A stretch of DNA of 64,000 nucleotides from Thunnus maccoyii (lineage: Eukaryota; Chordata; Actinopteri; Scombriformes; Scombridae): the NCBI RefSeq assembly GCF_910596095.1, contig NC_056533.1:28866662-28930661 (forward strand), in the 5' to 3' direction. The position numbers were made by a program, and so were the translations under genes. Positions 16,005 through 48,647 of the stretch are shown here, in pieces. Positions within the stretch are counted from its first letter, which is position 1, and each line of letters opens with the position of its first letter. The notes beneath the pieces were generated by a model. It saw only the letters and a program-made list of their open reading frames with translations, made no database searches and was not told the origin of the DNA.

Positions 16005-19000
16005 GCCATTTGCGCACTCGCTCATGTGTGACTCCGCATGTGTATAAATAACAGCTGATTTTTTTCTCGTGAGTCATTGTGTTTTCACACTCCATAGTGG
16101 GACAGCATCACCATCCTGCGTAGTGAGCCAATGGTGCTGGAGGGGGGCTACGAGAACTGGCTACTGTTTTACCCCATGTACACAACCAACGCTAAAGTTC
16201 GGCCCCCTAGACAGAACATTACCAGCACCCTCCCTCAGTGTGAGTATAATCGGCGCAGCATACGCCTCCAGCTTTGGCACTCTGTCTTCACCAAGCACTG
16301 GGATGTTAGTTTTTGCAACTGCAAAGCCAGTGGAAGTGTTAATACAGCTGCTGTTATTTTATTTTAGGAAATTATAAAAACTTATGAATAAGTGGGTTAA
16401 ATTTTTCCTACTCAGATGTCATATTCTCCACAAAAAGATGTCTTAAAATAAATGTTCTTACGTCGGCTATGTAATGCACATCATAACCATTGTGTTCCAG
16501 CTCAGAGTCAGCATTCATTTCCTGTATTTGCAGTGTAAAGGCTTATATAGTACAGTGAGATATAATCAAAAATAAATAAGAATATAGTTTTAAAAATGTG
16601 TGTTAATCTTGTGTTACTCATCTAGTGTACCTGGGCTTTTTAGTTTCTTCTGTATAAGAAGGTGATTCTCTCTTAGATTGTTTTTTTTTTCCTCTAATGT
16701 TTTCAACAGTAAACTTCAGTTACCCATCTCTTGAGGAACCAAAGCCTCCGACCCCGCCTCCACCAGAGCCTGAGGTTAAACCTGAGCCGCAGGAACTCTC
16801 AGCTCCTCTGTTGGTGAACGGAGTTGCTCCAACAGAAGTCCCCACACCTACAATGTCTGTGGTTGCCGACAGATTACCGGACACTGTCGATTCCTCTGTC
16901 TCAGGCTCCACAAATTCTGGGCAGGACCTAAATAAAAGGGGACCTGCGGCAGGTACATCTAGCCAGCCAGCTTCCACAGCCAAGGCCTTCCCACAGGTAC
17001 TATACTTAAAAACAATAGGAGAATACAAAAAATTAAGGCCTCAAAGTGTCTTTAAGCATCACTTATGCTATCATCTTTTCCTCCCTTGTTGTCCTGTTCC
17101 AGTTTGACCGTACCAAGAAACCCTCTGTGCGAGTGTCAGATGAGCCGAAACCCAGCCAGAATGGGTCAGACAAGGACAGCACCCAGAACGGCCCATTTGT
17201 CCCCAACCGCTCCGTCAAACCATCCTTCAACCCCAGCACTTCTCTGTCTAAAGAAGAACAGAGTCGGATACACTCTGAGGCGGTGGCAGTGATGGAGAAG
17301 GCACGACAAGAACAGGAAAAACGCACCCAAGAGCGGCGTCTAGAGGAGGAGAGACGGGAGAGGGAACAGAAGGAGAGGGATTTGAAGGACAGGGAAGAAA
17401 GTGAGAAGAGGAAGAAGGAAGAGGAGGAGAAAAGACATCAGGAGAAAAAGAGGCTGGAGAGGCAGAAGGCAGAAGAAGAGGAGGACAAAGAGAACAGGGT
17501 GTGGGATGAGAAAGAGAGGAAGGGAAAAGAGCAGAGCTCTGACACACCCTCAAAGAGTATGTCGTTGGACTCGCCTGCTCCCAACCATACTGTCAGTGAA
17601 ATAAAAGTGAGTCCTCTCATCTGTCAATGTCGATCACTACTACAGGTTGATGTTTCATTTCACCTCTGTGTGCATAGGAAAGTGTATCAAAATAATAGGT
17701 TTACAAATTGTCTTCATGCAAGTTACAACACAATCATATGATGTTATTGGAGACGTCTGTCCTAAATTACACAATAAGGAATAACGGTTATTGCAGGGAC
17801 TTAAATCTAGGGTCCCCAAATTGTGGATAAAAGGAAACTTGTGAAAACCTCACCTTTCAAATGGTATTCTAACCAGCAAGACCACAATTGCACATTTCCA
17901 TAAAATCTCAACATATAGCCCAGTGATCAGATCTGATCAATTGCAGGATTTTAATCTTGGTTATGCTCCCAACTTCAGACCAAAAGACAATTATTTTTAA
18001 CCTAAAACTAATATCTAATATACCCCTTTCATACAGCTGATCATGCATATTGTCATAGGTCATCAATATGTGTGTTTAACCCACTTTTAACCCAGAGACT
18101 GCTGTTAATGACTGGTTATCTGCAGCTGTACTTCCACACACCTTTGCTAAACAATATAATTACACAGAATTACATTACAAATAGTAATTAGATAAATGCA
18201 ATAACTACATATGCAACAGAGGTCCATGCTTTGCAAAATATACAGAAACACTGGAGACACTTGTGTGGTGGTGTATGAATCATACAGTTTTATGGGAGCT
18301 GATGAAGGCCAGACATGTCAATGACATTGGGATTCAGAAGTACTTGTTTTATGCTATTCTATTTCTTTTGCCCTTACCTTAAAACATCCCTTATAATTAT
18401 TTTTGCTGTAAACCTTTAAGTGCAATGTGCATGTTTATTCCACAGAGGGAGCCCCTGACCAGAGCAAGAAGTGAGGAGATGGGTAGGAGCGTACCAGGCC
18501 TGCCAGACGGTTGGATGAAGGTAACAGACATGTTTGAATATGAGACACTCTAAAATTGTAACAAAGTTGAGTTAGTTGGAGTCATTGAAAATAGACTGAG
18601 AAAAGAGAAATGTTCATTTAAATGATAATTATTTCTGTGTGTCTGATTCATGTCTGTCACTAGTAGCCTAATGCTTTATTGCTCCTTCGTTTCGGCTAGT
18701 TCCTGGACACCGTGACAGGGACTTACAGATACTACCATTCCCCAACCAACCGCGTCCACCTGTACCCTCCTGAGGTCACTGTTCCTCAGACCCCACCCTC
18801 CACACCGCCAACAGTCAAACAGAAGCAGCCACGACCAGCTGAGCCTGACCCCAACCGCGAACGAGAGCAGGAACAGTCCAAATTAAAACGCTCCTACTCC
18901 TCCCCCGATATCAGCCAGGACCTGAGAGACGAGGCCCAGAAGAAGGCCACCGCCCCAACCACTGCTGCTACCATACCAACCATCAACAGAGAGACCAAGT

Positions 19001-22000
19001 AAGACACACAGAGATGTTTTATGACACTCTGATACCTTCTAAAGCATATATTCTATTTTACATTAGTCCTGTAACACATAATACCTTTGTAACTTGTGAC
19101 ACTATATCAGAGGGCTGTTAACTCTATTGTCATATTTAGGGTTATAATTGCTGGTATCTATAATCAGTGTTCTCTCTGTACCTTTTATGTCTCCAGACCT
19201 CCCAGTACTAAAGTCTATTCTAAAGTGGAGATTGCACGACCTTCGGCTGCTAAAATCCGCAACCTGAATCCTACATTCGGAGGCCTGGGTGCATCCTTCA
19301 CTGGCCTCCGTAACCTCGGCAACACATGCTACATGAACTCCATCTTACAGTGTCTGTGTAACACTCCTGCCATGGCTGATTACTTCAACAGCAATTATTA
19401 CCTGGACGACATCAACAGGTCAGGGCCCAGATAACAACTGTCAAGAGATTTGTGGAGATGAGGAAGATATTTAACATTTCTGCTCCCGTTCTCACCCTCT
19501 GACAGGTCCAACATCCTCGGCCATAAAGGGGAAGTGGCGGAAGAATTTGGTGTGATCATGAAGGCGCTTTGGGCCGGTCTGTACAAGTGCATCAGTCCGC
19601 GGGACTTCAAAATCACCATAGGGAAGATCAATGAGCAGTTTGCTGGTTATGATCAGCAAGACTCTCAGGAGCTGCTGCTGTTCCTGATGGATGGGCTCCA
19701 TGAGGACCTCAACAAGGTAGTACTCACACTAGATGCCAAGAGAAAAAATTAGGACGCTAGCACCAGCATGGCATAAATTATTTTAATTTTTAAAAAGTTT
19801 AATCCACATAAGCTCACGCTGACTGAAATATTAAGTGAATAAATATTAATTAATTTATTCCTTTCAACCACGGCTTGCTAAGGCCTTCTGCTACCCCTGT
19901 ATGTTGTTGCACGTTTGCCTTTTGATCATAAAAACTTAGTCTTTTTATAATTTTCCTTCTTTCTGTTTTTTTTTCACTGGGTTTCATTTTGATGGCATAT
20001 TAGAGAGTAAGTAATTAGCTGTGTGTCGTTGGTCCTCCTGCAGCAGTGTGAGTGTGGTATGTCTGCATCTGTCTGGTCTGATGCTTCATCAGAACCTCTG
20101 CATGTAGACCCAAGACATGCCTCCATTGCCTGTATCGACTGACTTTACTGGCTTCATTTTTATTTGAATGGAGGAAAGGACTAGAGAAATCAGAAAAAAG
20201 GACAAATTCAGACGATTTCATAGCTTGATATTTGACCTTTTTTCCATTTTTATCACGCTAAAACATCAAAAAGACATTTTTCTTAGCTAAGACCACTGTT
20301 GAGCTGTCACTGAAGACGGCAGCTGGGAGATAAAACCATGATGAATGTCTCCACCTGGGGGTCGACTGAAAGTAGTGCATCCACCCCTTTTTACTTTTCA
20401 AACTGTTTACTCTCTCAAATGTAAAAAATATGGTGCCATCTAACAACTGAGGACATGCATTTCTCATGACACACTCTTCCATCTCATCACATCTCTTTTG
20501 TGTGAAGTTCAGACCTGTCTGCCATCAGGCTGGCCCAGTCCCAGTCCACTTTGTCTCTCCAGGCTAATTGGTAATTCAGTCAGACTAATTAATGAGATAG
20601 TAATTAGCATTAAGTGTTAACTTGCCTCTCATATCTCCCTGCCCTTCATTCCGAGAGTGAACTGGATATGGCTGAACTGCATGCAAATGAACCTGAAAGA
20701 GATGAAATAGGTGATGAATATAAAGTCTGTCACTGAGGAATTCAGCCTGTAGCAGTTATACTCAATGGTAATTGCTGTATTTTGTGAGATATTTAACTAC
20801 GACTGGAATAATCTGTATCTGTCACCAGCTTTGGTGGAATCATGAAATCAGGTTTTGCCTAAGCTGCAGTTGTTCCCGTGTGCGATCATGTTGTTTTTCC
20901 ATCTCTGGTGTCAGGCGGACAACAGGAAGCGGTACAAGGAGGAGGAAAATGACCATCTGGATGATCAGACGGCAGCAGACGTCGCTTGGAGCAAACACAA
21001 GCTGCTGAACGAGTCCATCATCGTAGCGCTGTTTCAGGGGCAGTTCAAGTCCACCGTGCAGTGTATGACCTGCCACCGTAAGTCCCGGACCTTTGAGACC
21101 TTCATGTATCTGTCACTGCCTCTGGCCTCCACCAGCAAGTGCTCCCTGCAGGTCAGTCAAATGAATCAAAGCCTGTGTCCGGAGTTTATGTTAAGCTTTA
21201 AGCTTGTCAGACAGACTAAAGTGTCACTGTACTTGACTGAAATGAATGTTTTGTTCTGTATTACAGGATTGTCTGAGGCTGTTCTCCAAGGAGGAGAAGC
21301 TGACGGACAACAACAAGGTGTTCTGCAGACACTGCAAAGCTCACAGAGATTCCACCAAGAAACTGGAGATCTGGAAGGTCCCTCCCATTGTCCTTGTGCA
21401 TCTGAAACGGTCAGTAGTGATGCTTCTACCTGTGTATATTTAATTATGTAGACTAAGAGCAAATGCTGCCTACTTCAGTCTTTTTCAGTATAGAGATATT
21501 TTGCTTGTTTTTTATAATACTCATTTCCACTGTTTGGAAAAGATGAAGAAACTTTGAATTATAAGAATTTGGAATAAATCCTAATCTGTTATATGTTTTT
21601 TGGGGGGGAGAATTTCTTTCAGTGTTAATAGGTTGACAATATTATTCTCGCATCGTTTCCTGCAGCTTCTCCTATGAGGGCCGATGGAAGCAGAAGCTGC
21701 AGACCTATGTGGACTTCCCTCTAGACAGTCTGGATCTGGCCCAGTATGTCATTGGACCCAAGCAGAACCTGAAGAGATACAACCTTTATGGAGTTTCTGT
21801 AAGTAGAAGTGAAGTGAACAGTAGAATGACCAATAGATTTGTAAGCAACGTTAACATCTGCCAGCACTTTGCTTTTACAGTAAATTATCCATGAAACAAT
21901 TGTTTTTTAAACAAATGAAAATTTACTCATGAAAACAAACAAGAAAGGAGGATAAGAGATGCAAAAAATACACAGCACACAGCTATGTAGTATTATTACC

Positions 22001-22552
22001 ATCACTGTGTAGTAATATATTGTACATATTCTTTAATGCTGCCAGTCATTTGGTTGGGAGAGTCCATAAAAAGATGATAAAGGGATGTAAAACTTTTTTC
22101 TTGCTACTCAAATAAGCCAATATCAAATTATTTCTTGTACTAAACACAGTGTAGATGAATTCTCCTCTTGGTTAATGTTTTTAGCCACTTCAAAGCAAGA
22201 TGAAAAGGCAAAAGCAAGGGTACAAAAAAGAAAATAACCTGTTTTCATAGATGAGAATAAGTTTGCAGACGGCTTGATGAGTGCACAGATCAGAACTGCA
22301 GTCCTGATGATTCAATAAGTAACCCATTAAATGATTATGATATGATTATATAGCCGTTGAGATGGTTTTAACTGTCGTCTTCTCCTCTGCCAGAACCACT
22401 ATGGGGGCTTAGATGGCGGCCATTACACAGCCTACTGTAAGAACAGCATCAAACAGCGCTGGTACAAGTTCGATGACCACGAGGTGTCCGAAATCTCCAC
22501 CTCTTCCGTCAAGTCCTCCGCGGCCTACATCTTGTTTTACTCCTCCCTGTGA
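11534..22552 (+). CDS. usp8: Ubiquitin carboxyl-terminal hydrolase 8 (USP8/UBPY)
   Basis: Endosomal deubiquitinase acting on receptors and ESCRT-0. Coding exons: 11534-11637, 12292-12436, 12594-12679, 12802-12943, 15197-15236, 15386-15554, 15797-15959, 16098-16239, 16710-16996, 17103-17606, 18446-18520, 18700-18998, 19197-19418, 19506-19716, 20915-21151, 21267-21409, 21666-21798, 22394-22552. All phases agree; total 1086 codons (human 1118). Order of parts: USP8 dimerisation/MIT region (1-110), rhodanese-like domain (about 170-310), two STAM-SH3 motifs (FDRTKKP 427-433, VPNRSVKP 459-466), a Glu/Arg/Lys-rich coiled coil in exon 10, a WW-like segment (about 611-641), the 14-3-3 site RSYSSP (683-688), then the USP domain. 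Catalytic Cys763 (GNTCYMN), His1044 (GGHYTA) and Asp1061 are present. Both CxxC pairs of the fingers are kept. Exon 4 could alternatively end at 12910. Confidence 0.96.
11690..12210. mobile_element. Foldback (long inverted repeat) MITE in usp8 intron 1
   Basis: Left arm (about 11690-11815) and right arm (about 12085-12210) are imperfect reverse complements over roughly 120 bases. The best block is AATGTAAGTGATGGGGGCC on the left against the complement of GGCCTCCATCACTTACATT on the right. Outer ends pair GGTGCCCATAT with ATATGACACC. The element lies wholly inside intron 1 (11638-12291), just before the exon 2 polypyrimidine tract. No clear target duplication was found. Confidence 0.75.
12944..15196. 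other. usp8: usp8 intron 4, repeat-rich
   Basis: The longest usp8 intron. No exon-like open frame. CpG-containing blocks at about 13830-14180 and 14740-14940 look unlike the surrounding AT-rich DNA and resemble old interspersed repeats, but I could not name them. TC-rich runs occur at 14130-14165. Confidence 0.5.
15965..16003. repeat. (GT)n microsatellite at the start of usp8 intron 7
   Basis: About 19 uninterrupted GT units begin only five bases after the splice donor of exon 7 (donor GTAACT at 15960). Confidence 0.97.
20510..20730. promoter_or_regulatory. Candidate conserved element/enhancer in usp8 intron 14
   Basis: Inside the 1.2-kb intron 19717-20914. A compact cluster of homeodomain-type cores (CTAATTGGTAATTC, CTAATTAATGAG, TAATTAGCATTAA) is followed by an exact octamer ATGCAAAT near 20681. 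Base composition and motif density differ from the neighbouring intron. Only motif density supports it; conservation is untested. Confidence 0.35.
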
Positions 22553-24170
22553 CGGAGCTGCAGGACACAAAAGAGAGAGAAAACACTACAACAGAGCAGT
22601 GACGCTCAAGCCTAGAGGTTGTTTTTTTTTTTCCTTTTTAAGATCACAGCTCTGAGGACCTGGTGCACGGAGTTGCGGGTTGACTAGAGGGTGCACGCGA
22701 GGAACGCACTCGAGCAGGTGGCTGTGAAAATCCTGTCTGTCCTAGATGGGAGAGAGGAGAGGTGCAGGCACACTGTGCAATGCTTCAGCTACTAGAGGAC
22801 CCTATAGCTGTTAAAACATGCCGTCTGTTCATATTACTGATCATCTAGAGACTAAACAGATGCTCCTTTCACTCTGACACTACCTTCGATGGCTGTGTTG
22901 TAGGGCTGACAGCTGGTTCAGATGCTCTTCACCCTCATTTCTGTTGTGCTCAGCGTGGATGGCCGTATAGCAGAAGTGATCCTCAGCTTTCTCGTACTGT
23001 GTATACACCGGGGTTAACAGTTAGACGGCATGTACATACTTACAGATGCTGATGTTGCACATTCAAAATGTAAATATTCAAGGGCAAAGTGTTTATCTGT
23101 TAAGTGACCAAATTTTTTTTTTTTTTTCCTTGAAAGTAGCAGCCATTATAGTATCACCACATTCATGAAGACAAACCATGTGTTTTAAGGGTTAAATTCT
23201 ATAGCCTTCTAATGTTTAATATGATCTTTAATCACATGGAAAAGGCTGTGAGCGTTGAATTTTGCGTATTTCCTAAAGGGAAGTGGGAACTGATTGTTGC
23301 TTGTTCATATTAGCCACATTCTTGCACTTACACAATATGCAATCAGTTTAAGTTTTTTTTTTGTAATGTAGAACGCATCATTTAACTGCATACATTAATA
23401 CTCGACTCAGAATGCTTTAAAAACGATATCGATGCTGAGATCTTGTTCGTCTTTCTCGGTCCAGCCAGTGCGGATGCTACCTGCTTCTATAAAGTCGGTT
23501 GTAGGATTTAAAACACACTTAATTATTGACTTTATATCTCCAGTGCAAACAAAAAAAAACTATTTAGAGGACAAATAACTGGCATCTTTTCTTGGCTTTT
23601 AACAACGATGTTGGTTTTTTTTTGAAAAAGTAGGTCTCAAGGAGGCCGAAATTTAGATTTATCTGATTAATTTTACTTCTGTGTTCAGTACTGACCCAGG
23701 ATGATATGAATATGTGAGAAATTGACCTTATTCTCTTTCACAAGTGTGTTAATGTCAACACTTACTGCCTGCCTGACTGACCGACTGACCAACGAGAGCA
23801 AGCACAAAGTATACTCACATTTTTCCTGAATGGACCAGAGATCTGAAGTGGCAGGATTTGACTCTACTTCCTGAGTAGTTTTCTTGCCCAGCATGAGATT
23901 AGGAACTTTTATTTTCTTGTACATGTTGATTTTATTTCTTAACGCTCTAAAAATTGTTTCAGATATAACAAATATATTAACCTTATCAACTCATGACTAT
24001 TTATTAAAACTGCTTCAAATTAGCGTTTGTGTGTGGATGATTGTTTTATGGTATTTTTAGCATAACATATTCAGTGGTGCAAACATTTGGCTGTAATGAT
24101 AACACACAAGGCATTGCTAGATCATTTCATTTATTTAAGAACATAATTATAAAGCCACCAAGAAAATAAA
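22553..24170 (+). other. usp8: usp8 3'UTR and possible poly(A) signal
   Basis: There is no further open frame after the TGA at 22550-22552. The sequence becomes AT-rich with T runs, as expected for a long 3'UTR. An AATAAA stands at 24165-24170. An earlier ATTAAA near 24003 is an alternative. The exact end is uncertain. Confidence 0.5.
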
Positions 24171-24268
24171 CATCAGAGATGTTGCCTGTGCTGAGGAGCA
24201 GATTCAAACTCAGGGGAAATGGGCAGAAAGCCAGTCCCGTCATGGATTAAGCCTTGTGGTTAGAGAGC
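24130..24268 (-). other. usp50-like 3'UTR with poly(A) signal
   Basis: On the minus strand an AATAAA lies at 24135-24130, about 135 bases after the stop codon at 24271-24269. This would give a very short 3'UTR whose end overlaps the possible usp8 3' end. Confidence 0.5.
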
Positions 24269-27200
24269 TCAGAGTCCATGGATCTTTGGCTTTTGGAAGG
24301 GTTTGCGGCTGTAGAGCAGCATGTAGGCATTTGCAGATTGCACAAGGCTGTCCTGTACCTCTCTGACCGCTGAGTCGTCAAAACAGTGCCAGGTGCGCAA
24401 CAGGGCGTTGCGGCACAGAGCTGTGTAGTGACCCATGTTCAGATGACCTGTATGGTTCTAGAGAGGGAAGAGTTACTTTATATGGACAGCCCCCCAGCAA
24501 ATATAGAGGACAGAAATAGTAAGAAAAATGCTCATTTACTGCAAATATCTTTTAAATTCTGACATATTTTATTCAAACTTAAGCACTAAAAGGTGTTCCT
24601 GCTCTTTTATATGTAGCCATTTTAGAATAAAATACAGTCTTGACCTGATCTTTTGTTTAAATGCACATTTGAAACAGTTTTTGCAGTTTTCATTTACTGC
24701 AAGATGCATTGTAAAGAGGATATAATGTAGCTGCAGCACTTGATTGCCATAGTAAAATATGTATGATGTCATACACAAAATACAAAAATCAAAGAAAAAC
24801 TGTCACATGATGTAAAAAATCAAAACCCTGAACAATTAATTGACACTAATAACCAATAGATGACAGATTTTAAGTAAAATGTCTCATTAACAATCCCATC
24901 TATCCATGTTACAACTGCCCAGTGTAAAACAATGAACAAACGCTCCACTCACTCCACTGTTTTTATTGTCCCTTTAGTTTGATGTTTGGAGAAGAGAGAA
25001 GGAGGACGAAAGATTTTTAATAAGGTAGCTGAACATTTCTTGTGGAAAAACATGTTGGACACAATTTATTATTCCAAGTCGAGGTCTTTTATATGTTCTA
25101 AAACCTTTCTGGAGGGGATCTTTAACCACACCGTCCGGATCTAAATCATCAGCCAGGACTGCGTTTGCTGCTTTGAAACTCGCAGCCAAAAGATATTAAA
25201 ATGATCTTAGCAAGGAGGGCTTCTAATCTATTTGTCTGTGTGTGTTCACTCACCACAACAGCGTACAGACGGTATGAGGAACATGAGGTGTTCTGTGCTG
25301 AGCTGGATAGAAACGGGCTGAGATCAAGCTTCATGGAGAACACAACGTTTGTCCTCAGTTTCACCTGGTTTTTCCCCTTACAACCAAACCTGCAGAGGAT
25401 ATAAAGATGGCATTGATTTAAGAGGATATTACTGGTTTACAGCCTCTTGAATCTAACTAATACCATCAACATTCACTCTCCAGACTCTCCAGGGTATCTG
25501 CAGTATTTAGACTTCCTCATAATGGAATACACAACTAATGTTGGTGCATGTAGAATATAACTCTTCTTGAATTAATACGTGAATATACAGATGATTTATA
25601 GTCAATCATCCATAATTATATTTATTATTTACCATTCATCTTCTTTTTCTGAGCTTTCACATGTTTGGCCATTCGTCTCTCTCATTAACAAGATGGTTTC
25701 TGCCCACAGAACTGCTGCTTAATGTTGTCATGAGGGTATCTCAGACTCATAAGGTTATTTATGAAAGCATAAATGAAGACCAAATGCAGACTATTTGAGG
25801 CATGTTGAAGTATACTGATGATTGGAGCAAAAGGTTTCTCATACTTGCAAAAATTGATGTACTGTTTATTTATGAGACTCTGTTGTCTAATTAACATATG
25901 ACTTAACTGTGAGTCGACAGCCATAAATTGTATCATGATCAAAGTTTAAAGTAACTATCTCAAGCACTGCGTCACAATGACCTCTTCAATTAAACATTCA
26001 CCCTCACTATGAAGTTATACCTAACCGGTGCAGTTACATTTCTACCCACCGTTTCAGGTGCAGCATTAGTATTTCAGGGGTTTTGTCCAAAGTAGTTATG
26101 ACGGCTGTTTCTCTCCTCAGCCCACACGCTGAACACAGCATCTGCTCTCCTCCAGTCAGCATAGTCTGCTCAAAGAACAGAGACAAGCAGTCCTGTACGA
26201 CATAGAGACACAGTGAGGGTGAGAAAATGCAAAACAATAAGCTCAAGACCGCAATGTCTAGAATATGATATGCATATGTTAAAATATACCTGAATGGAGC
26301 ACTTGATGGTGTCTGTAGGAATTGGTAAGGACAGCACAGTGAAGGTCTGTGCGCTGTGTGCCTGGTGATCGCAGTGCATGCAGAGGGTCATGTAGCCCAG
26401 CTGGCCCTCAAACAGATTTGAGACGATGGTGGACTCTGTCACCGCCGTGGCACAGTTTCTGTTCTGGTCTTTCCTCAGCTGTTTTATTGAGGAGCGCATC
26501 TGACGCCTCCCAACCTTGTTAACATAAACAAACAGATTCACTCTGAATTTTTTAGTTTAAGTGATTTGCCACAGAGAGGCACAGCTTGAGTGGTAATGGT
26601 TACCACACCTTTTTAAGGTCATCATGGAGTGCATTGAGGAGGAAGAGCAGCAGTTCTTGGGCGTCCTGCTGGGAGTGGTTGTTGAACTGGGGGAAGATGG
26701 AGCACAGCACAGTCCTGGCCTCCACAGGGGCACAGCTGGAGCTTTTTCCCAGCCACATCTCCTCCAGCAGGCGGACAAACACCAAGGCCACCCGGCACTT
26801 AGACCTGCATGAACAGAGGTTAGACCACTGGGAAAAATGACTGAAAAACAGCCAGTCAGAGAAACACAGAGACAGTTGTCTCACCGTGCCAGCTCTGTCC
26901 GAATATCCTGATTGAGGAGGTTCTCCACTAGGGGCACGGTGGAACACAGACACTGAAACACAGCATTTAAGTAGCACGAGTTTCCAGAGTTGTCCAAACC
27001 ACACACGCCTGGAGTGTTCCACACCTGCAGACTCATTGCAGAGCTGCAGCCTTGTTTGTCATTCTCCATCACTTGACCACTGCTATCTTTCCTGCAATAG
27101 CAACGACACCACAGGAAAAACAACAACTTTTTCCTCTGCAATGTTGCACAATGTATTTTAACCTTATACATTATCAATATCAAAAAGTTAAATATGTGTG

Positions 27201-29125
27201 TCAGCTAATAGATAGTTGGTTGATAGAAAATTCAAGCAAAAAAGTTAAACATTTGCTGCTTCCAGTATCTCAAATGTGAGGATTTGCTGTTTTTCTGCTT
27301 TATAACATTGTAAATTAAATATCTGCAGCTGTTATACTTTGGCTGAAACTGGGCAATGGGAAATTGTCCCTTTTTTAATTAGGCTTTTTCACCATTTTCT
27401 GAAATTTTATAGACTAAACAATTAATTCATCAAAAACATAATCAACAGATAATTGGATAATTAAAATAAACAATTCTTAGCCACAGCCCTAATATTGAAA
27501 ATAATAAATATCTTTTTACTCTCCTTTTGTACTATGAACACAATTACCCATACCATTAAAACATTATTAAAGGAGTGTATATTAATTAATTAATCATGCT
27601 ATTTAATTCATAGAGCATAAATATGTAGTGCACAACTGTCCCTTAATGACATCACCGAAAATATGTGCAATCCTTAGAGCATGTACAATAATTCCACGTC
27701 TAATTGTTTGTTGTACTTGATTAATGACAGTCCTCACTGCTCTCCACACACAGCTTTGATTATAAAGTATTTTAAGAGTTCAAACACTTTCAAGAATTGA
27801 AAAACTAAGTATAACTCTTTTGTTTGCATTGTTTTTGTGAAGGGTACTATTAGCTTGAACTGAAACACTGTAACAAAAAGTCAGACTAACCTTTGCTTAG
27901 GAAGGTTTGTTACGCTTGTCTCTGGGTATGAGCTGCTGTTTAGCCGAGGCAGGATGGGCACGGTCACACTGTTGTCCACGGCCAGCTGAGAGGCCAGAGT
28001 TCTGGTAAACTCCGTCAGGTGGACCTGCCTACCTGAGCTCTGCAGAGTGTGCAGCACAAATGTGTTGATGCAGATCGCGTGTAGCGTCACCCAGAGACCA
28101 GGGAGAAACATGTCTACTGCTGATCCTTTTAGGTCTGACAGAAGGAACAGAGCAGGTCCAGTCCAGCCCTGCAGATGAGCTACAAATTGGGACAGTGAGT
28201 CTTCAGATGTCCGTTGGTGCTTTGACTTGACTGGTGGAGATGAAGAAGATGTTGACTCTGTGACTGTCTCTTTAACAGATGGAACAAAATGAATATTGAC
28301 CCCTAAGTTAGAGAAGATGTCTGTGAGTTTTCCCTCCATCCAAGCAGAACTGTCCAACTGAATCAGGTGCCTGTGGCTGCAGAAAGGTGTCAGCAGGTGG
28401 TCCACTACCTGCTCAACAACAGGTTTCCTACTGCGCCTCAGGAGCTGCTCTGGACAGTACAGGTACATGTTACAGATGAAGCCTGAGCTCATGTCACAGA
28501 GAACGGCAAGATAGAGAGAGCAAGGAGTCTGTTGGTAGGAAAGTCTGTATTTCTTCACAGCCAAGTTCTGACCAGGTGTGTATAAGGTCTGGTAGCGCCT
28601 GGTCAAGTAGCCACAGAAAGCAGAGATGGTCTCCAACTTTTCTGCATCCTCCAGCCTGGTCAGAGACAGGAGGCTGGTCTGGAAGCTGTTTCTTTTCAGG
28701 ACACCCTGCCATCCCTCCAGCTTCAGGGTCAACTCAGAGCCAAAGCTGCAGTTCTCGCCCACAGACAGACCGCTCTGTAGAACAATAGAGAACCATGTTA
28801 ACGCCTCGGCATACTCCTCCTCAGAGAGATCTGTGCTCTGCTCCTTGCTCTGATGCTTAGCTCTTGTCTTCACACCAGCAGCTCTCCTGACCAGCTCCCG
28901 GACGGCTCCTCTGTCCAGCACTTCCAGCAGGAGCTCTCTGGCTGTGTAGTAAACCTGGTAGGTGGGACCAGTCTGAATCCGGGTGAATGGCTTCACTTTT
29001 TTGGACCTGAAGATGTTGGGCAGACACAAACCGTCCGTCTGGGAGTCTCCATGCAGCTCGTCCACTAGGTGGCACTCCTCTGACATCCAGGTGCACTCTT
29101 TCACTGACAAAGCCTTGGCCTTCAT
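24269..29125 (-). CDS. usp50: USP50-type ubiquitin protease fused to a piggyBac-derived N-terminal domain
   Basis: Seven coding exons: 29125-27891, 27091-26885, 26804-26609, 26514-26290, 26192-26050, 25389-25254, 24457-24269. Phases agree at every junction, giving 776 codons. Residues 1-411 are a degenerate piggyBac transposase; residues 412-776 form a USP domain. Catalytic positions are kept: Cys451 (GNSCYLN), His724 (MGHYTAL) and Asp741 (CFDDS). CxxC zinc pairs are visible (LCMHC, LCSAC). Motifs EMWLG and LYAVVNH match human USP50 more than USP8. Intron positions and phases in the USP part equal those of neighbouring usp8, which it faces tail to tail. The join is exon 1 ending AAG CAA AG (phase 2) with donor GTTAGT, to an acceptor GCTATTGCAG supplying the final G. 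The unspliced frame would instead stop three codons after the donor. The start ATG is the first in frame; a 5' exon may precede it (acceptor TTTTCTTAG at 29137). The function of the fusion is unknown. Confidence 0.82.
27170..27495. mobile_element. Degraded hAT-like MITE inside usp50 intron 1
   Basis: The right part shares TTTTTCACCATTTTCTGA, TTTTATAGACTAAACAATTA and the end CACAGCCCTAA with the 34436-34811 element. It sits in the 799-base intron that joins the piggyBac exon to the protease exons. Confidence 0.65.
27891..29125 (-). other. Domesticated piggyBac-transposase-derived exon
   Basis: A 1235-base exon without stops. By eye it follows the piggyBac fold order: dimerisation region (about 55-120, LSEEEYAEALTWFSIVLQSGL); the R-F-LH-like segment (KRNSFQTSLLSLTRLED, 144-160); the first catalytic block (YTPGQNLAVKKYRLSY, 182-197) in which the usual VDE is VKK; the CDMSSGF strand (210-216); the second block QLDSSAW (256-262), with Asp258 kept but the following Asn lost; and the end segment AVDMFLPGLWVTLHAICINTF (336-356). 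The cysteine-rich C-terminal tail of active transposases is absent. No terminal inverted repeats or TTAA pair flank the exon. Transposition competence is therefore most unlikely; an open frame kept over 411 codons suggests selection. Confidence 0.78.
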
Positions 29126-29704
29126 CTCTGCTTGGTCTAAGAAAATGCCATCTCAAGATAGTGATGGCTTCTCCCACAACAAAGACCTCTGATCTGAAAC
29201 CAGCATGACACGGCAACAGATAAGCCACAAAAAACCCCCCTCAACTTCTGTGCGCTGAGGTGGATCTCTTATCCTATAGGGTGTCTGACAAACTATGTGC
29301 GCTGGGTGTGTTGGTCTGCTCTCAGGTGAAACACATTCTCTAACACTCATGAGGATCTGCTGTTGAGGTAGATCACCAGGGATCCTCTGCACCTACACAA
29401 CTGTGTCTTGGCAACCTATAAACATAACACTTTGACCGCAGTGCAGCTCTCATGACATGTTTTTGTCCTTTTGTGTGTGTTCTCAAGGTTAAGCTTGACA
29501 TTTAGCAAACCTTTTAAAGCTAAGGGCAACCATGCATGATATCCATTTCTTTCAAACGTCACAGTATTTGTGAACCTGAGCAGCTCTCCCTCACATAGAA
29601 ACAATCTTTTCTACACTCCTCCGGATGGCCCCTGTCATTAAGAACCTATTTAAACTTATTTTAGAGGCTATTTTTTTAAGCTTATGTTACAAAGACAGTT
29701 GCAG

Positions 29705-29769
29705 CAGTACCAGTGACAAAATATAGTAACATAAAATATTCATGTGACTATATTTTGTCACTCGTACTG
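29705..29769. repeat. Short near-perfect hairpin
   Basis: Left arm 29705-29727 (CAGTACCAGTGACAAAA...) and right arm 29747-29769 (ACTATATTTTGTCACTCG...) are reverse complements over 23 bases with one mismatch. The loop is 19 bases. Size and shape are similar to a microRNA precursor or to a tiny MITE. Confidence 0.75.
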
Positions 29770-32700
29770 GTAAAACTCTTGTTAATATTTTTCCTACTTT
29801 CCCTCCAAATCTGGAAAAGCCACTTCTCTTTTGCTGCAGTCCATCTTACTGCTAATGCCTCTGCCATGCGGAGGTTCATACTACACCCCTCAGATCCCAC
29901 CCAACTCTGTTCAGTTTCCTTGACCAGCCAGTGGGAGCTGCTAGTGCAGCATCAAAGACATGATCCCTCACTGGCTTCCCACAAAGAAACACCGCCAAAT
30001 GTTTTTTAAGAATGCACAACCACGCTGGAGGGTTGTGGGTGTTTTTGCCCTTTTATGCCTAAATGTATTCTTATTTTGCTTACAGACTGTACTGCTTGCC
30101 CTTGTCTTTGGTGCTGCTTATGTCTTGTTATTTAAGTGGCCCCCTACTCTTGAGTTTATTCTTAAAAGGTACAATCTGATCCTAATGTAAATAAAATTTG
30201 AGCTCCATCACCAACACAATACAGCATCTGAACTTATCACTCCCAAATCTATCTTGCACACATCTTTTGTTACACACACAACAGTAAAATCTAGAAAACA
30301 TTTTTTTTACATTAGTATTGCAAGTAAATACAACAGTAATACTTACTTATACTAATACTTAGTAATACTAATAATACTTGCATATATTATCAATTATGAT
30401 CAGTTGAAAGTCGAACAAAATGCTTTTTTAATGCATAAGACAAACTATTCAATTATATGAGTGAAATATATCTAATTAAACTTACTTGTGGGCTCTCACA
30501 GTATAAGCTTCAATGTGGACAACAAGGCTGAGTGTTGTCGCTGTTATATTTGTCATCAAATCTTTTTAACAAGCCAGTAAATCATGTGCTGTGTGGACAA
30601 ATAAATTCTAGTTTCGGACCTCCTCCTTTCCTCTCCAAACCGACAATCTTGATGAGGATGATAACACTCTGAGCAGTGTGAACTCTACATAGAAAAGATG
30701 CTCCAGTTAGTAAAACATTTTGCAGCAATAAAATGAAACATAAAAAACCTCAAACATGCACATAGCTGGCAGCATCTGCGCATACAATACCTACATCTAT
30801 ACATCTAAACTGCCTCTTGCCACCTGGTGGCCCAGATTGGACGAGAACTGCTGATCCAGGGCTGCGTATCTGAAACTGTGGGTGGTGCAGCTGGATGTTA
30901 TCACCTGGTTTCAGGTGCATTAACATCAGTGACCCTGTATGTTGTTGTTTCACAGAGCTCCTTCTATCAACTCAAGATCAGTTCAACAAAAAGATTCTGG
31001 TCAATTATTCAGCCAACATTGCTGCAATTTTGGCAAAACACATTTTTGCCTCCACAGATTTTTATCCAACATGCACCATGTGGGAACAAAAATATCTGCT
31101 GGGAGCCTTTATCATAGTTTCAGCCAAATAGTAATATTCTAAGCTGTTTGGCTGTGACATCCAAACATATTTAGCAATTAAGACACCAAAAAAAAGGTAT
31201 TTCTCTCTGCATTGTTTTGCCAGATCATTATCAAAAGTCCCCAAAGTACACATGTTCGTTTCACAATAATCCATCCATTGCCATCATTAGGCAAAAGTTC
31301 ACCTTGTGTACTGTCTGTGATCTTGAGAAGAAAGTATCTGCAAACAAGGTAGACAACAGGCCCAGCGAACGATGTAGATAATGTTTGAAAAAAAGAAAAT
31401 CTTTAAAAATTGTAAGCAAAAGGTGTAATTTAAGGTCTTAAGCCTCAGTGAAGGATGAACTGACACCAACAGATACTCAAACAATAACAGTGATTCGGTA
31501 AGTGTTTTTTCTACAGTGAATCTACTGTATATATGCAGCAGCACCGGGGCGTCGTGACAATAACTTGCCGTCTGTCATCGGGGGTGGAAGAATCACACAA
31601 TTAGCTTGAGGGCTCTGGAAGCTCTCTTGCATAAATCAAATCTACTTTCAAGCTCAAAATATGTTAATCCCCTAATATCAAAGGGCATCTTCTCTCCCTC
31701 AGTACGCCCTTTGAGCTTTCTGCAATTTCTAATGTAAGACCTATTCATTTACCCACAGAGAGCATAATCCAGTATCCACTGTTACAGGATGTGCTTTAGT
31801 GTGAAGTGGCCAGCGCATCATGTCACCCACACAACGAATAAGAAAATACGAAGGTGATGATTTTATTTCATGTAGGAGTCTCAAGTAATACACATGTCGA
31901 CTATATTTCACAGTATAACACCACTCAAATTATGTTAGGAGAATGCTTTTTAACAGCATCCTGCTGTTTTTCCTTGTGAAACTATGGTTGAAAGTGCAAT
32001 CCCAATGGATGAAACTGTCAGAGCTCTGGTGTTTTTTGACTTCTTAGGCGGATGCATCACCACTAGAGAACTGTTGTGTTATGTCCCCTATCCTGCAGGC
32101 TCCACAGCTGGCGGACAGCTGTAGCAAGTTGCAGTCTTGCAGTCTGCGTGTGGAAAAAACACACACAAATGCAAGGCCAATACACACACATTTCTCTGTT
32201 CATACATGCAGATCTGTTAATGATTGATTTAATATCAGTTTAAACTCTCAACATATTGTATATGAGAAGCATGCAAAGGTTTTACACATTTGAAACATGA
32301 AATCAAAATGCTCAGTCATAAATATGGCAGCAGGGGTTGTAGCATTTAATATAGCTTTCTTTTTACCCACTTTGGTCACATATTATTTATAAACAATGAC
32401 ACCAATTGTACTTCATATTCTGTGGTTGGCTTTTTGGCTTTGGTATGTTTTATGGGAAAGGAGTCACATGTGGTGGTACAGTTTTGTTTTTTTTTTAATA
32501 CTTTTTATTCCTGTTATTCATATAAATCAATTATAACCAACTGCATATAATAATGTTTTTCCCCATATCATAATTTCTATCCAATTTTACAGCTGTGGGC
32601 ATGTTTTGCAGACATGTTTAAGTAACTGAGTAACTCCTAAATAAGTTACTCTTAATATTCTTTGATAGAGACAGATACTCACCTCTTTTCTTCACCAATA

Positions 32701-32999
32701 CTCTGCATTTTCCCCAGAAAGTACAAAATCATTATTAATACAAAACAAAAAAAGAATGATATGATCCTTTTCGTAGTATATGTCTTCTTCTCTGGGCAAG
32801 ACCAGATGAGAGTTCCTGATGAGTCTTTCATTTACTGGGTTTGTGTGATGAAATAACGCATCTGAATTTCATTCGACTCATTTTGTTTATGATCACAGTG
32901 AAATTATTCTACTAGTGTTTCCTATATAACCTAAACACATCATATGTTATAAACTGATCATGGCTGCAGTGGAATAAAAATTACAGTCATTTCAAATAT

Positions 33000-33110
33000 T
33001 TTAATTTGAAAAGTCTCATCAAAATGGAAATACTCAAGTAAAGAGAACTTCAAACTTGTATTTAAGTACAGTACTTGAGCACATATACTCAGTATATATC
33101 ACCACTGAAG
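33000..33110. mobile_element. End fragment of a CAGTGGTGGA-family MITE
   Basis: The block ACTCAAGTAAAGAGAAC and the end block AAGTACAGTACTTGAGCAC leading to ATCACCACTG match the family also seen at 36982 and 9550. Only an end fragment is left. Confidence 0.5.
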
Positions 33111-34435
33111 AAAATCTAACAAAGCCACAAAGTAAAAAAAACACCAAGATGTCATTAGAGGTGAAACATCTTTACTGACACTCCCTCATTTTCCTCTGCT
33201 AATAACCTGTGAAAGGTCACCGCAGGGACTTCTCATAATGACATCTTGTCTGGCTCACATTAGCCACACACTGACTGGGAGAACCATTCATTTATATGAA
33301 TTAAGCACACAAGCAGTTATTTGCTTCCTTGGTAAATTCAAATGTCATTTTGAAGAATCAGCACATCAACATTTAGTGACTGAGTTTTTGCTTTGCGCCA
33401 TTAAGTGCTGATGCTGATAACATTTCTGCTTTCTAGTGGTGAAACACACAAACACAGACAACACACACACACTTCTTTGAGGAACAAATTGTCTTCACCT
33501 CTTCACCGCTGTGTCCTGCAGCCAGAGTATTCACTAATTCATGAGCAATGCAATGTATGTGAATAAAAAGCCAGTGTGAATATAAATCATGTTGTGTGAA
33601 ACAGCATTTCTAATTATAGCCGTGGTGTCTCCTGGGAGGTCTGTGGAAAAATACATTATGTTATGCCTCTGCTAGAAAATACACAGACCATAAGTGGTTG
33701 TGAAATAGTTGCATCAGTTGTGTTTCTGTACTTTTGTCTGGAACTGAAATGTCTGTGTGTTTGTGAGTGAGAGTGAGGAATGGAAATATCCGCGTACTAA
33801 GGTCAACTCTGTTTTGGAAAACATGAGGAATTGTTATTGTGGTGGGAATGTATGCAGGTTTTCTTGTCAGCAGTGTTTGGAAAACTGGCCATAATGTGGA
33901 AAATGAGAACAACTGATAAGTCTATCTTTCTTTTTTTTCAGGCTGGCTCAGCCAAACACCTGCAGAAATGTACTGAGGCCTTATAACTATATGTCAGTAC
34001 AGCACAGTGATCAGAGACGTGTTTGTACATCTGAAATGTTTATACAGAAGCCCAGAAGTCCTCAAAGATGGTATTTTCTTAATTATGAAGGAACAATTGG
34101 ACTCAATTTACTTCATTTTACCAGGATAATCTGCTTCAATCACATCAACGTTGCTCTCTAGGGAATACTGGGTACACATATTAAAAAATAAGCATTATAA
34201 CAATAAGTTAATTATCTTGTGGAAACAAGTTATTCACCTTTCATAAAGTTGACTCCAATAACTTTTTCGTCACTGCTTCTTTTGTAGATTTCCAGCTGAA
34301 TGATTTTCTTTGAGCAGCTGTCAGTATACTCATAAATACATAAATTGTCATATGAACATATAAGATATATATCATCTTTTGGACTCTGTTTTTTTTAAAT
34401 CATTTTCTTAGCACTTCATAAACATTCATGTAAAC

Positions 34436-34811
34436 TAGAGCTGCTGCGATTGGTCAATTAATCGATTAGTCAATTGACAGAAAATGAATCGCAAACTATT
34501 TTGAAAATCAATTCATCGTTTGGAGTCATTTTGCACGATAACATACAAAAGTTCCATCGTTCTTGCTTGTTAAATGTGAATATTTTCTGGTTTCTTTAGT
34601 CTTCTATGACAGTAAACTGAATATCTTTGGGTTGTGGACTGTTGGTCGAGACAAAGCAAGACATTTTAGCTTGCACCTCGGGCTTTTGCAAACAGTGATC
34701 CACTTTTTTCACCATTTTCTGACATTTTATAGACCAAACAACTAATCCATTAATCAAGAAAACACTCAACTGATTAAACAATTATGACAATAATCGTTAG
34801 TTGCAGCCCTA
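34436..34811. mobile_element. Intact hAT-type MITE with 8-bp target duplication
   Basis: The element starts TAGAGCTGCTGCGATT and ends GTTGCAGCCCTA, which are inverted ends. It is flanked on both sides by ATGTAAAC (34428-34435 and 34812-34819). An 8-bp duplication fits the hAT superfamily. The body carries no coding capacity, so it would need a transposase in trans. Confidence 0.88.
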
Positions 34812-36981
34812 ATGTAAACCAGTGAATCTTCTGTGGACTATGTAAGTGATGATGGTCTAAATCTGTTCTTTCATTTTCTAAACCTATTGTCCTTAGAGCA
34901 GAAAATAATCTCCATTTGAGGTGTCAGTGTGCACCTGCATGGTAGAGAAGCATCTTAACTCATAGTAAATCAACTTGTTCCTACAATATTTTATTTGCAC
35001 AAAATAATAAATAAATGAACAAATTAAATAAAACATTTTTTGGGGTCTTCCTGTTTGTTTGCACATAAAATAAGAGATGTTTCATTATGGAGACTCTCCA
35101 GCTAAATTGCATGTGTGTGTAATAAATGTGCTTTAGCAGGAACAGCTGTTGCTGCTGTGCGAACGGAGGGAACAGTGTGTTTTGAGGACATTGTGAATAT
35201 TAATAAGCTTTTAGAATGATTTTGTTTAAATGAGGGCACGAATTAGCACGTTATCCTTCATTGTTTATCACGTCAGCTTCAGGGTACTACAGTCCAACTG
35301 AGGACTAACACATTCTTCTCTAGCTGATCACTCTTCTACTCTCCTTCACAAAGTTACACACAACTTTTAAATATTGACTCATCTTAAACCCTCTCGTAGA
35401 AAGATACCCTGCAGTCACAGTGAACTTTAAAGTTTTCCGAGGTTGCGTCACTTGAATACAGACAGTAAAACTCTTGCTCTTATCAAGGTGAGTGCACAGG
35501 CAATTTGAGATTTTTTTTTATGAGCCTGACAAGGGAAACCAGCAGCTTGTTGTGTTTGCTCTCCTGTGTCCCGCAAAATGGCACATTGCTCAGAAGTCAC
35601 ATAAAATGCTACACTGATCTGATGTCACTGAACAGGACGCTTTGTAACTTTGGCAGTGGTTTGAGCTTTTCAAAGTGCAGGTCCCTGAGAGCCGACGTCT
35701 ATTTATAAAGTCACTTTGTGTTCTAACTTTAGTATCCAGCTCTCTGACCAACTCTGGTCTGAATATGGACACACATTCTGACAGTGAGCAGCCATAATGA
35801 ACAGCGTTAAGTTTTAGCAGATGGCTGTGGGGAAGCTTGAGCTTTGTCTCCACATTTCTTCAACCACACCGCCAAGCAGGTCATCGCAGTCATCACAAAT
35901 AACTCCTACGGAAGTTATTTCAGTACTTTCCACTGGAGGAAATTCGGTAGAAGCTTAGGCCGTTCTTGCTGAATCCCAAACACTAAGTTTTAATTGGCCT
36001 TCCAGGAAAGAGAATAGCATTCATGACCTTGAATTAGGAGTGAATGCTGTCAGCTGATGGGTGGTGAGTTGAGCTGCTTATCTGTGTGTTCCTGGGTTTT
36101 ATTTTTAACCTGACAACACCTGACAGGCCCTGAAACTGGGGGAGACCATGCCAAAGCATGAGAAAGCATGAGGAAGCATGAGAAATGAGGTATGTAGGTG
36201 CAAGACTGAGGAGAACCACACGTTTCATAGCTGTAATTTGCAGAAAAATGTGTTGATGAAGAAGCAGCAGAGAGGAAGGATGGAGGAGTCGTGTCTCATG
36301 ATGGCGGTAATGAGGCCTAAGTGGTGTTGATGTGAGCGGAGATGGAGACAATTAAACTGAAACCATAACATCTTTTTGTAGAAAGGAAAACAGGAAGACA
36401 GAGGGAAAGAGGAAGCTGCAGAGAAGTTTTGAGAAGGCAGGTGGACAGAGGACATGTGACGTAGTGGAAGTGAAGGCAGTGGAAAGTGCAGATGACATTT
36501 TGGTAAAGTCTTTGGCCTACATTTAGTCTCTTGGCACAAATCAGGCACCTTTACTTACATCAGAGTATTCCAGCAGGGTTTAATCACTGTGGCGGAGGAT
36601 TGTATTGTTACCAAGAGAGCAGAAAAACAACACATAGCTGCCCTAATTTCTCCCAGCAGGAAGTGGCAGTAGTGAAAAACTGAAGCCCAGCTGTAGCCGA
36701 TTATTGTGACACAACCAACTCCAACCTTTGTACTACGTTTCCCTTCCTTTGAGGTCAGGGTTGTATAAATGAATCTCATATTTATGCTTATTATGAACCA
36801 GTTTTCAACCAGTTTTCAACCTCATCTGGCCAAATATTTATCTATTCAGAAAGATGCAGGCTATTACAGGCAACCGTATGCACTTTTTGGTTCAGATACA
36901 ATTCACTTGCTATCTTAGAGAATAAGAATCCATTGCAAGAAACACAGGGGTTATAAAGCGCGCTTTATAGAGCACATAAGC

Positions 36982-37400
36982 AGTGGTGGAAAATTACGAA
37001 GTACATTTACTGTTGCTCAAGCTTGTTTACATGTTACTCAAGCACAATTTGAGGTTCTTGTACTTTAGTGCTACTTTATATGTGTACTATACATATAAAC
37101 GTACTACATTAGGGATGGTACTATGGAAAAATTATATTTTACATATTTGACAGCTATAGTTGCAGATTCAGATCATACAAAAGCAGGTAATTAGTATCTT
37201 TATTATAAACTATAATGCATTGTTACAGATCTAACTACCCAACTGTTTATGAAGTAGTTAAAACTGGCTCCAACTCAACCAACCACATTAAAATTAAGAC
37301 TTTTACTTATGTAGCATTTTTGAAAGCAGCACCTTTTACTTAAATGTAATGTAATGGAGTATTTTTGTAGCTTGGAATTACTGCTTTCACTTCAAGTGTA
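36982..37400. mobile_element. CAGTGGTGGA-family MITE
   Basis: The left end CAGTGGTGGAAAATTACGA is followed by GTACATTTACT, TGAGGTTCTTGTACTTTA and GTGCTACTTTATA. This is the typical start of a family I know to be abundant in percomorph fishes. The right end is eroded and no target duplication was found. Confidence 0.65.
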
Positions 37401-38282
37401 AGTGACAGCAGTCTCAGATAATTATGTGCAATATGATCCAGTGTTTTTGGCTCATATACCCAAACATTTATCCATCAAGATATCTAAGGTATCTGACACA
37501 AATCATTTACTAAACCCCTTTACAAATTTTGGTACAGAAAGCAATTTATCTTGACATTAAAAGATCTTGCTACCTCAGCACTGAAGAATATAATTTACAG
37601 GAACCCCAGAGATCATATGCTTTATTGAGCAAATAATACCCTTTACTTATCAAAAAAGCCTTTTCTTGTGGTGAAAATGCGACACCACACTACACTGTGT
37701 GATTAAACCAAAAATGGGCTGTCAGAGGGACTTTCAAAAGGCCACTATGACGTGGGGAAACCCATAGTTTCCACACAATTGGATGTCATCAGGTTCTTGC
37801 TAATGCAATTAGAGAAGTTGGTAAATACACTGGGCTGCTTGTATTGGGACATGAAATGGCATCACAAGCTTGTTGACAAGCCAAGAAGTGTGACTATTGC
37901 AAGACAGGCAAAGCCAAGTGTGAAACTTTAGACGTCTGTTATGTAATCCTGCTTGTTTCTCTCTGTACTGTTTTATACCTAAAAAGCAGGTGGGAATCTC
38001 TGCGCCAAGACGACAGCCCTAATATATGGTAGCCAGAGCTACATTTAGCCGGTGGCTCAAAGCCCGTGTCCCCGGCACTCGCAGTGTAATTCAGTCTGCC
38101 TACGTGCACATTAAAAAAGGTGGAGGTGGCAGCTCCGTGGTCAGCACTTCTCCACCGACAAGGATCTCATGGCTGCGTCGTCATACAAAATTCAAGTTAC
38201 AAAAACACCACTTAACTGAGGCAGAGAGCCATCCCTGACCATGAAGAAAGAAGAGAAGGAGACCAAACTCTTTGCCAGTAAT

Positions 38283-39644: not shown

Positions 39645-48647
<9,003 letters not shown>

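What the first reader, a model, noticed from the sequence alone, without database searches (positions are those of the whole stretch)
24269..29125. A piggyBac transposase domain spliced in frame onto a USP50 deubiquitinase
Seen: a 411-codon stop-free exon with piggyBac layout ends at AG|GTTAGT in phase 2. The next exon starts at a good acceptor in the matching phase and runs through a complete USP domain, and all seven exons keep one 776-codon frame. Known: domesticated piggyBac proteins (PGBD1-5) and one transposase-host fusion (CSB-PGBD3) exist in vertebrates; I know of no description of a piggyBac-USP fusion. Inference: a DNA- or chromatin-targeting module may have been joined to a deubiquitinase, so the enzyme could remove ubiquitin at genomic sites.
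Basis: partly seen in the sequence, partly recalled or inferred. Interest (0 to 1): 0.93.

Follow-up and report, generated by a model that had tools for sequence, protein, structure and literature searches.

The report
Fish USP50 gene beginning with transposase
In a fish genome, the first predicted coding exon of the deubiquitinase gene USP50 is an old, apparently single-copy piggyBac transposase remnant that reads in frame into an enzyme domain with intact catalytic residues; if transcripts confirm it, this is a new transposon-host fusion gene.

Summary
Seven minus-strand exons (29125 to 24269) join with GT-AG borders into one 776-codon frame. Exon 1 (411 codons plus 2 bases) scores above Pfam's cut-off for the piggyBac domain DDE_Tnp_1_7 (30.5 against 22.4 bits). 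Exons 2-7 encode a full USP domain (199 bits) with catalytic Cys, His and Asp in place. The exon-1 protein matches only itself in its own 782-Mb genome, where the family profile finds 119 other matches. It therefore looks like an old domesticated remnant, not a recent insertion. Its six intron phases equal those of the neighbouring convergent USP8 gene; four of six positions coincide in the alignment. Against a simple 'DNA-targeting' reading, the C-terminal cysteine-rich domain is missing, the third catalytic Asp is uncertain, and the similarity is remote. No transcript or orthologue could be examined, so a separate intronless gene beside USP50, or an alternative isoform, is not excluded. CSB-PGBD3, the piggyBac fusion I read about, uses the transposase as a 3' terminal exon; here it is the 5' exon. 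I judge it probably a genuine fusion, a new variant of a known kind.

The parts
27891..29125 (-). Exon 1: piggyBac-derived domain, 411 codons + 2 nt, ATG at 29125, donor AAG|GTTAGT
   Evidence: Pfam DDE_Tnp_1_7 30.5 bits; frame; no other match in genome
28493..28495 (-). D211 codon, first putative catalytic Asp (VLCDMSSGFICN)
   Evidence: alignments; coordinates
28352..28354 (-). D258 codon, second putative catalytic Asp, 47 residues after D211
   Evidence: alignment and spacing; one profile alignment put a gap here
28112..28114 (-). D338 codon, possible third catalytic Asp (GSAVDMF); assignment uncertain
   Evidence: gapped alignments; coordinates
27092..27890 (-). Intron 1, 799 bp, phase 2; no AATAAA, two ATTAAA; holds an interspersed repeat at about 27231-27496
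26885..27091 (-). Exon 2: junction, in-frame ATG at 27069 (residue 420), USP Cys box (C451)
26609..26804 (-). Exon 3 of USP domain
26290..26514 (-). Exon 4 of USP domain, first Zn-ribbon CxxC (C591)
26050..26192 (-). Exon 5 of USP domain, second CxxC (C641)
25254..25389 (-). Exon 6 of USP domain
24269..24457 (-). Exon 7: His box (H724), Asp (D741), stop codon
24130..24135 (-). AATAAA poly(A)-like signal, starting 134 nt after the stop codon
18700..22552 (+). Neighbouring convergent USP8, catalytic 3' half (seven exons read here); six introns with the same phases 2,2,0,0,2,0 as the USP50 gene

Best explanation
This is a fish USP50 gene whose first coding exon is a long-domesticated piggyBac transposase core. 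Inferred history: the catalytic 3' half of USP8 was copied in inverted orientation next to USP8, without USP8's 5' exons. A piggyBac copy lying upstream then supplied the start codon and a phase-2 splice donor, and it splices into the inherited USP8-type acceptor. Shown: the open frame, the domain matches, the lack of a second detectable copy, and the shared intron phases of USP8 and this gene. Inferred: that the join exists in mRNA. Also inferred is how the protein would work: the USP part is an active deubiquitinase, and the transposase core acts as a dimerising or weak DNA/chromatin-tethering module, probably without transposition activity because the cysteine-rich domain is gone and the stretch between the second and third Asp is shortened.
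For: One 776-codon frame through seven exons with GT-AG borders. DDE_Tnp_1_7 above its cut-off, and still found within the joined protein (28.9 bits). Above all 999 controls with two own-genome profiles: 13.0 against at most 6.0 bits and 13.1 against at most 3.6 bits. D211-D258 spacing of 47 residues; the corresponding positions are 47, 47, 47, 46 and 43 apart in five piggyBac proteins of this genome. UCH matched over profile 1-254 of 254, best solved relative USP8. C451, H724, D741 and both CxxC pairs line up with USP8. Intron phases 2,2,0,0,2,0 in both USP8 and this gene. Exon 1 is 52% GC in a 37% GC background, with GC3 0.62 against 0.65 for the USP part. Its own frame has the best codon score of six (0.293 per codon); 450 overlapping non-coding window frames reach at most -0.122 (model trained on the USP50 and MAPK6-like exons, background taken largely from the same non-coding stretch). 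No AATAAA in intron 1, one after the USP stop. No second copy of exon 1 found in the genome (its first look gave only 4 candidates).
Against: No transcript evidence. Exon 1 reads on past the donor for two full codons to its own stop (TGA at 27883-27881), so it could be an intronless gene of 414 codons, and two ATTAAA signals lie in intron 1. Exon 2 has an in-frame ATG (27069), so USP50 could start there. A donor of this score or better occurs 88 times in 128,000 bases (both strands), so one near the frame's end is only mild evidence (about 2% per 30 nt, before a one-in-three phase match). A better-scoring donor inside exon 1 (28032) would break the frame (donor table recalled). The piggyBac similarity is remote: single-sequence comparison found nothing significant among 657 ORFs of 50 residues or more from 28 piggyBac loci, all six frames (best E 0.51), and the best PDB match, piggyBat, had E 0.33. 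No orthologue could be examined, so purifying selection is untested. The paper read calls human USP50 'head-to-head' with USP8, whereas here the two genes converge; orthology was not tested by a tree.
Confidence: 0.66

Rival explanations
1. Two neighbouring genes: an intronless domesticated piggyBac gene of 414 codons (stop 7 bases after the putative exon end) and a USP50 gene with its own non-coding 5' exon, starting at the exon-2 ATG (27069).
For: Own stop right after the donor; ATTAAA at 27607 and 27379 in intron 1; in-frame ATG in exon 2; donor-like sites are not rare.
Against: A consensus-like donor in the right phase sits within the last codons. Exon 2's acceptor aligns, within one column, with a USP8 intron that receives coding sequence in the same phase 2. 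No AATAAA in intron 1.
Confidence: 0.22
2. Both products exist: alternative first exons give a piggyBac-USP50 fusion and a USP50-only protein, comparable with the two products of CSB/PGBD3. (This overlaps with the best explanation; the odds are not exclusive.)
For: In-frame ATG at the start of exon 2; CSB-PGBD3 precedent (PMC2268245, passages read).
Against: No second 5' exon was identified (none was searched for beyond the USP8-remnant test); no RNA data.
Confidence: 0.3
3. Exon 1 is a degenerate transposon piece that stays open by chance and is not translated with USP50.
For: Remote similarity, missing cysteine-rich domain.
Against: 423 open codons against at most 238 in 500 simulations; codon score and GC3 like the USP part. 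Many rows of the genome-wide piggyBac list contain stops.
Confidence: 0.05

Closest known systems
CSB-PGBD3 (ERCC6-PGBD3) fusion of primates
   Same: Host protein and piggyBac-derived domain joined by splicing
   Different: There the transposase is an alternative 3' terminal exon at the C-terminus ('exon trap', PMC2268245 passages). Here it is the 5' exon with a donor, at the N-terminus, and lacks the cysteine-rich domain
Domesticated PGBD1-5 genes
   Same: piggyBac-derived coding sequence in a vertebrate
   Different: Most of the PGBD1 group carry SCAN and KRAB domains and the piggyBac4 group a Zn-ribbon (PMC9499001 passages). A USP partner was not seen in the paper searches
Human USP50
   Same: Neighbour of USP8 and related to the USP8 catalytic domain, 36.6% identity (PMC11405836 passages); here 131 of 367 aligned residues are identical to the neighbouring USP8
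   Different: Human USP50 is described as lacking the acidic residues for catalysis and failing on a model substrate, though the same passage notes reports of activity. The fish protein has Cys, His and Asp at the USP8 positions. The human N-terminus was not compared in any call. That paper says head-to-head; here the genes converge
USP8
   Same: Catalytic domain and all six intron phases; four of six intron positions coincide in the alignment, one is 1 column off, one 5 columns off beside a gap
   Different: No trace of the two USP8 upstream stretches tested was found beside USP50

Membership tests
piggyBac-derived domain (DDE_Tnp_1_7) | Profile match above curated cut-off | tested here: met
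   30.5 bits, cut-off 22.4
piggyBac-derived domain (DDE_Tnp_1_7) | Three catalytic Asp (DDD) | tested here: inconclusive
   D211 and D258 line up with spacing 47. D338 lines up in two alignments but with large gaps; another placing by eye would delete it
piggyBac-derived domain (DDE_Tnp_1_7) | C-terminal cysteine-rich domain | tested here: not met
   One Cys after residue 290 of exon 1. PMC9499001 names PGBD5 as a CRD-deficient relative reported to be functional (passages), so this does not exclude membership or activity
Active piggyBac transposon | Several copies and TTAA target sites at its ends | tested here: not met
   Only itself found. No TTAA in 29126-29400, two in 27700-27890
Active piggyBac transposon | Terminal inverted repeats | not tested
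   Not searched for separately
USP deubiquitinase | Complete UCH domain with Cys, His and acidic residue | tested here: met
   UCH 1-254 of 254; C451, H724, D741
USP deubiquitinase | Ubiquitin cleavage | not testable with these tools
   Needs an enzyme assay
USP50 orthologue | Neighbour of USP8 with a USP8-derived catalytic domain | tested here: met
   Adjacent, convergent, shared intron phases. Adjacency in human from PMC11405836, which says head-to-head, so the orientation is unresolved
USP50 orthologue | Gene tree grouping with tetrapod USP50 | not tested
   No tetrapod USP50 sequence was fetched
Host-transposase fusion gene | Single reading frame through both parts with splice sites | tested here: met
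Host-transposase fusion gene | Chimeric transcript and conservation across species | not testable with these tools
   No RNA and no related fish genomes; scans of the prokaryote and virus collections found no relative
piggyBac 3' terminal exon trap (as CSB-PGBD3) | Transposase is the last exon, after host exons | tested here: not met
   It is the first predicted coding exon

The most novel reading that the evidence does not exclude
A fish deubiquitinase carries at its N-terminus a piggyBac core that still binds DNA or chromatin, perhaps with a remaining acidic active site, and so removes ubiquitin at chromosomal sites such as stalled forks. The chromatin role of USP50 would then have, in fish, a transposase-derived tether coupled to an active protease, while mammals kept only a ubiquitin-binding pseudo-enzyme.
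Probability: 0.15. Interest if true: 0.9.

Novelty: new variant of a known kind. Interest (0 to 1): 0.62.

Why it matters
The piggyBac fusion described in the paper read (CSB-PGBD3) puts the transposase at the end of a host protein, as a 3' exon trap. A transposase used as the 5' exon, supplying the start codon and splice donor to a duplicated host enzyme that lacks its original 5' exons, would show another route by which duplicated genes gain new N-termini. It would also give a testable link between a transposase domain and the chromatin role reported for human USP50, and it predicts that fish USP50, unlike what is reported for the human protein on a model substrate, can cleave ubiquitin.

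Tried and rejected
Recent insertion or assembly artefact: judged unlikely. Exon 1 has only itself as a match in the genome, it lies inside a 41-Mb contig, and ORFs from 28 piggyBac loci of the genome do not match it significantly.

Hidden remnants of USP8-like upstream exons next to USP50: two USP8 queries against 22601-39600 gave one chance-level hit (E 0.62).

Relatives in other collections: genome contigs and viral contigs gave none (15 and 16 pattern matches, none confirmed). These are prokaryote and virus collections, so this says nothing on age.

Structure prediction: not available. Whether D338 is the true third Asp therefore stays open.

Slips of mine, mended: three loci (L001, L005, L006) were read on the wrong strand, redone. 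In one search the USP8 exon-6 end was one base short and the second catalytic position of L017 was read one residue early; one search has the corrected alignment and L017 values, another the corrected exons. In one search three of the five USP8 donor positions (b, d, e) were mis-set by me and are not used. The codon coordinates of the three Asp are those.

Rows dropped: L007 left out of the first profile (stops inside). 28 of 52 ORFs (length 180 or more) kept for the second.
Full report
What is there. On the minus strand of a chromosome-sized contig (G000 contig 1; genome 782 Mb in 54 contigs; that it is a fish is my reading of the genes, not a call), seven exons between 29125 and 24269 join into one 776-codon frame with GT-AG borders throughout. 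The intron phases are 2,2,0,0,2,0. Exon 1 is 1235 nt and contributes 411 codons plus two bases. The open stretch is 423 codons stop to stop; simulations with the same dinucleotide make-up gave at most 238 in 500 trials. In its own frame exon 1 has the best codon score of the six frames (0.293), above all 450 overlapping non-coding window frames (at most -0.122). Its GC3 (0.62) is like that of the USP part (0.65), in a background of 37% GC. Part of that score simply reflects GC content: the two next best frames of exon 1 reach 0.202 and 0.108. The model was trained on USP50 and MAPK6-like exons, and the background came largely from the same non-coding stretch, so the control is not fully independent.

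Exon 1 is piggyBac-derived. Pfam DDE_Tnp_1_7 matches at 30.5 bits over residues 94-259 (cut-off 22.4), and 28.9 bits in the joined protein. Two profiles built from piggyBac proteins of the same genome give 13.0 and 13.1 bits; the best of 999 controls gives 6.0 and 3.6. Both also match the C-terminal helix region weakly but in the right order (ICINTFVLH ... EFTRTLASQLA). D211 and D258 lie 47 residues apart. In five piggyBac proteins of this genome the corresponding positions are 47, 47, 47, 46 and 43 apart, though three of these five have themselves lost one Asp. D338 aligns with the third Asp in two alignments, but with gaps, and another placing by eye would lose it; the D2-D3 distance is 80 against 111-124. 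The cysteine-rich domain is absent. Single-sequence searches are too weak to show the relation: best PDB hit piggyBat at E 0.33, best of 657 ORFs from 28 piggyBac loci at E 0.51.

It appears single copy. The exon-1 protein finds only itself in the whole genome at E up to 10 (4 candidates in the first look). The family profile lists 119 other matches, many with stops (a lower bound, since 116 of 253 candidates were scored; this exon is not among the rows). That is the pattern of an old, kept sequence rather than a live transposon.

The USP part. UCH is matched over its full length (199 bits). The best solved relative is USP8 (8xpn, 2.1e-62). C451, H724, D741 and two CxxC pairs line up with USP8. 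USP8 itself lies next door on the plus strand; its catalytic half was read here as seven exons from 18700 to 22552. The two genes converge. The six introns between those USP8 exons have phases 2,2,0,0,2,0, as in USP50. On the alignment four of the six positions coincide, one is one column off, and one is five columns off beside a gap (by eye both fall within an Arg before Ser or Thr-like residues). Identity is 131 of 367 aligned residues. The acceptor that receives the piggyBac exon is therefore most likely the inherited USP8 acceptor, in phase 2.

Is the join real? The donor AAG|GTTAGT scores 7.85 on a recalled vertebrate table, within the range of the other five donors of the gene (6.12-9.26). 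Sites this good occur 88 times in 128,000 bases, so the match is mild evidence. A higher-scoring site at 28032 would break the frame. Exon 1 would otherwise run into its own stop seven bases after the exon end. Intron 1 has no AATAAA but two ATTAAA; an AATAAA starts 134 nt after the USP stop. Exon 2 has an in-frame ATG at 27069. RNA is needed to decide between fusion, two genes, or both isoforms.

How it would work. Published work describes human USP50 as chromatin-associated, supporting replication forks, and as lacking the acidic residues for catalysis, while noting reports of activity by others (PMC11405836, passages read). The fish protein keeps Cys, His and Asp, so I infer an active deubiquitinase. 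The transposase core has no cysteine-rich domain, the part described as important for contact with transposon DNA. The same source notes that regions flanking the catalytic core also contact DNA and mediate dimerisation, and that CRD-deficient PGBD5 was reported functional (PMC9499001, passages read). Dimerisation or weak DNA/chromatin contact is the remaining function I think most likely. A KKVK stretch at residues 42-45 resembles a nuclear signal (recalled motif; position).

Known or new. No paper in the held library contains both USP50 and piggyBac. Further searches showed no piggyBac-deubiquitinase fusion in what they listed: 20 of 4,787, 15 of 36, 0 of 0, 12 of 97 and 10 of 72 papers. One survey of domains that co-occur with transposon domains was searched in its main text for DDE_Tnp_1_7, UCH, deubiquitin and USP, with no occurrence (PMC12062965; supplements not available). 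Subscription papers and protein databases were not available. The closest relative in kind is CSB-PGBD3, where the transposase is a 3' terminal exon, and the authors describe piggyBac in general as a 3' exon trap (PMC2268245, passages). A zebrafish survey of 2009 lists USP50 under missing genes in zebrafish (PMC2809080, a flattened table seen as a passage), so its distribution among fishes is an open question. Whether the fusion is restricted to fish, and its age, could not be tested.

The Asp codon coordinates were off by one and are mended. The USP8 identity, the intron-position count and the L017 residue are corrected. The head-to-head wording of the human paper is now told.

Noticed in passing
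window 27231-27496 (approximate): Intron 1 carries an interspersed repeat: 40 other matches at 71-88% identity in the genome (40 of 1399 candidates scored).
   Followed up: partly
window 29866-30031 (approximate): Upstream of exon 1 lies another dispersed stretch, with 39 partial matches elsewhere in the genome (40 of 75 candidates scored).
   Followed up: no
window 29697-29777: A palindromic stretch of about 80 bases matches its own reverse complement at 81%, possibly a small inverted-repeat element.
   Followed up: no
L005 (677-aa open frame), L017 (621-aa) and L001 (567-aa): Three other piggyBac-like proteins of this genome have long open frames but one changed catalytic position: third Asp to Asn in L005 and second Asp to Asn in L001, second Asp to Ala in L017. 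Some may also be domesticated genes.
   Followed up: no
window 39645-48647: Upstream neighbour on the minus strand: two stretches match the protein kinase domain (47933-48647), and it looks like MAPK6 (recalled). About 10 kb without an evident gene separates it from exon 1, judged from the ORF list only.
   Followed up: partly
window 28032: A second donor-like site inside exon 1 scores higher than the predicted one but lies in phase 1 and would shift the frame.
   Followed up: partly
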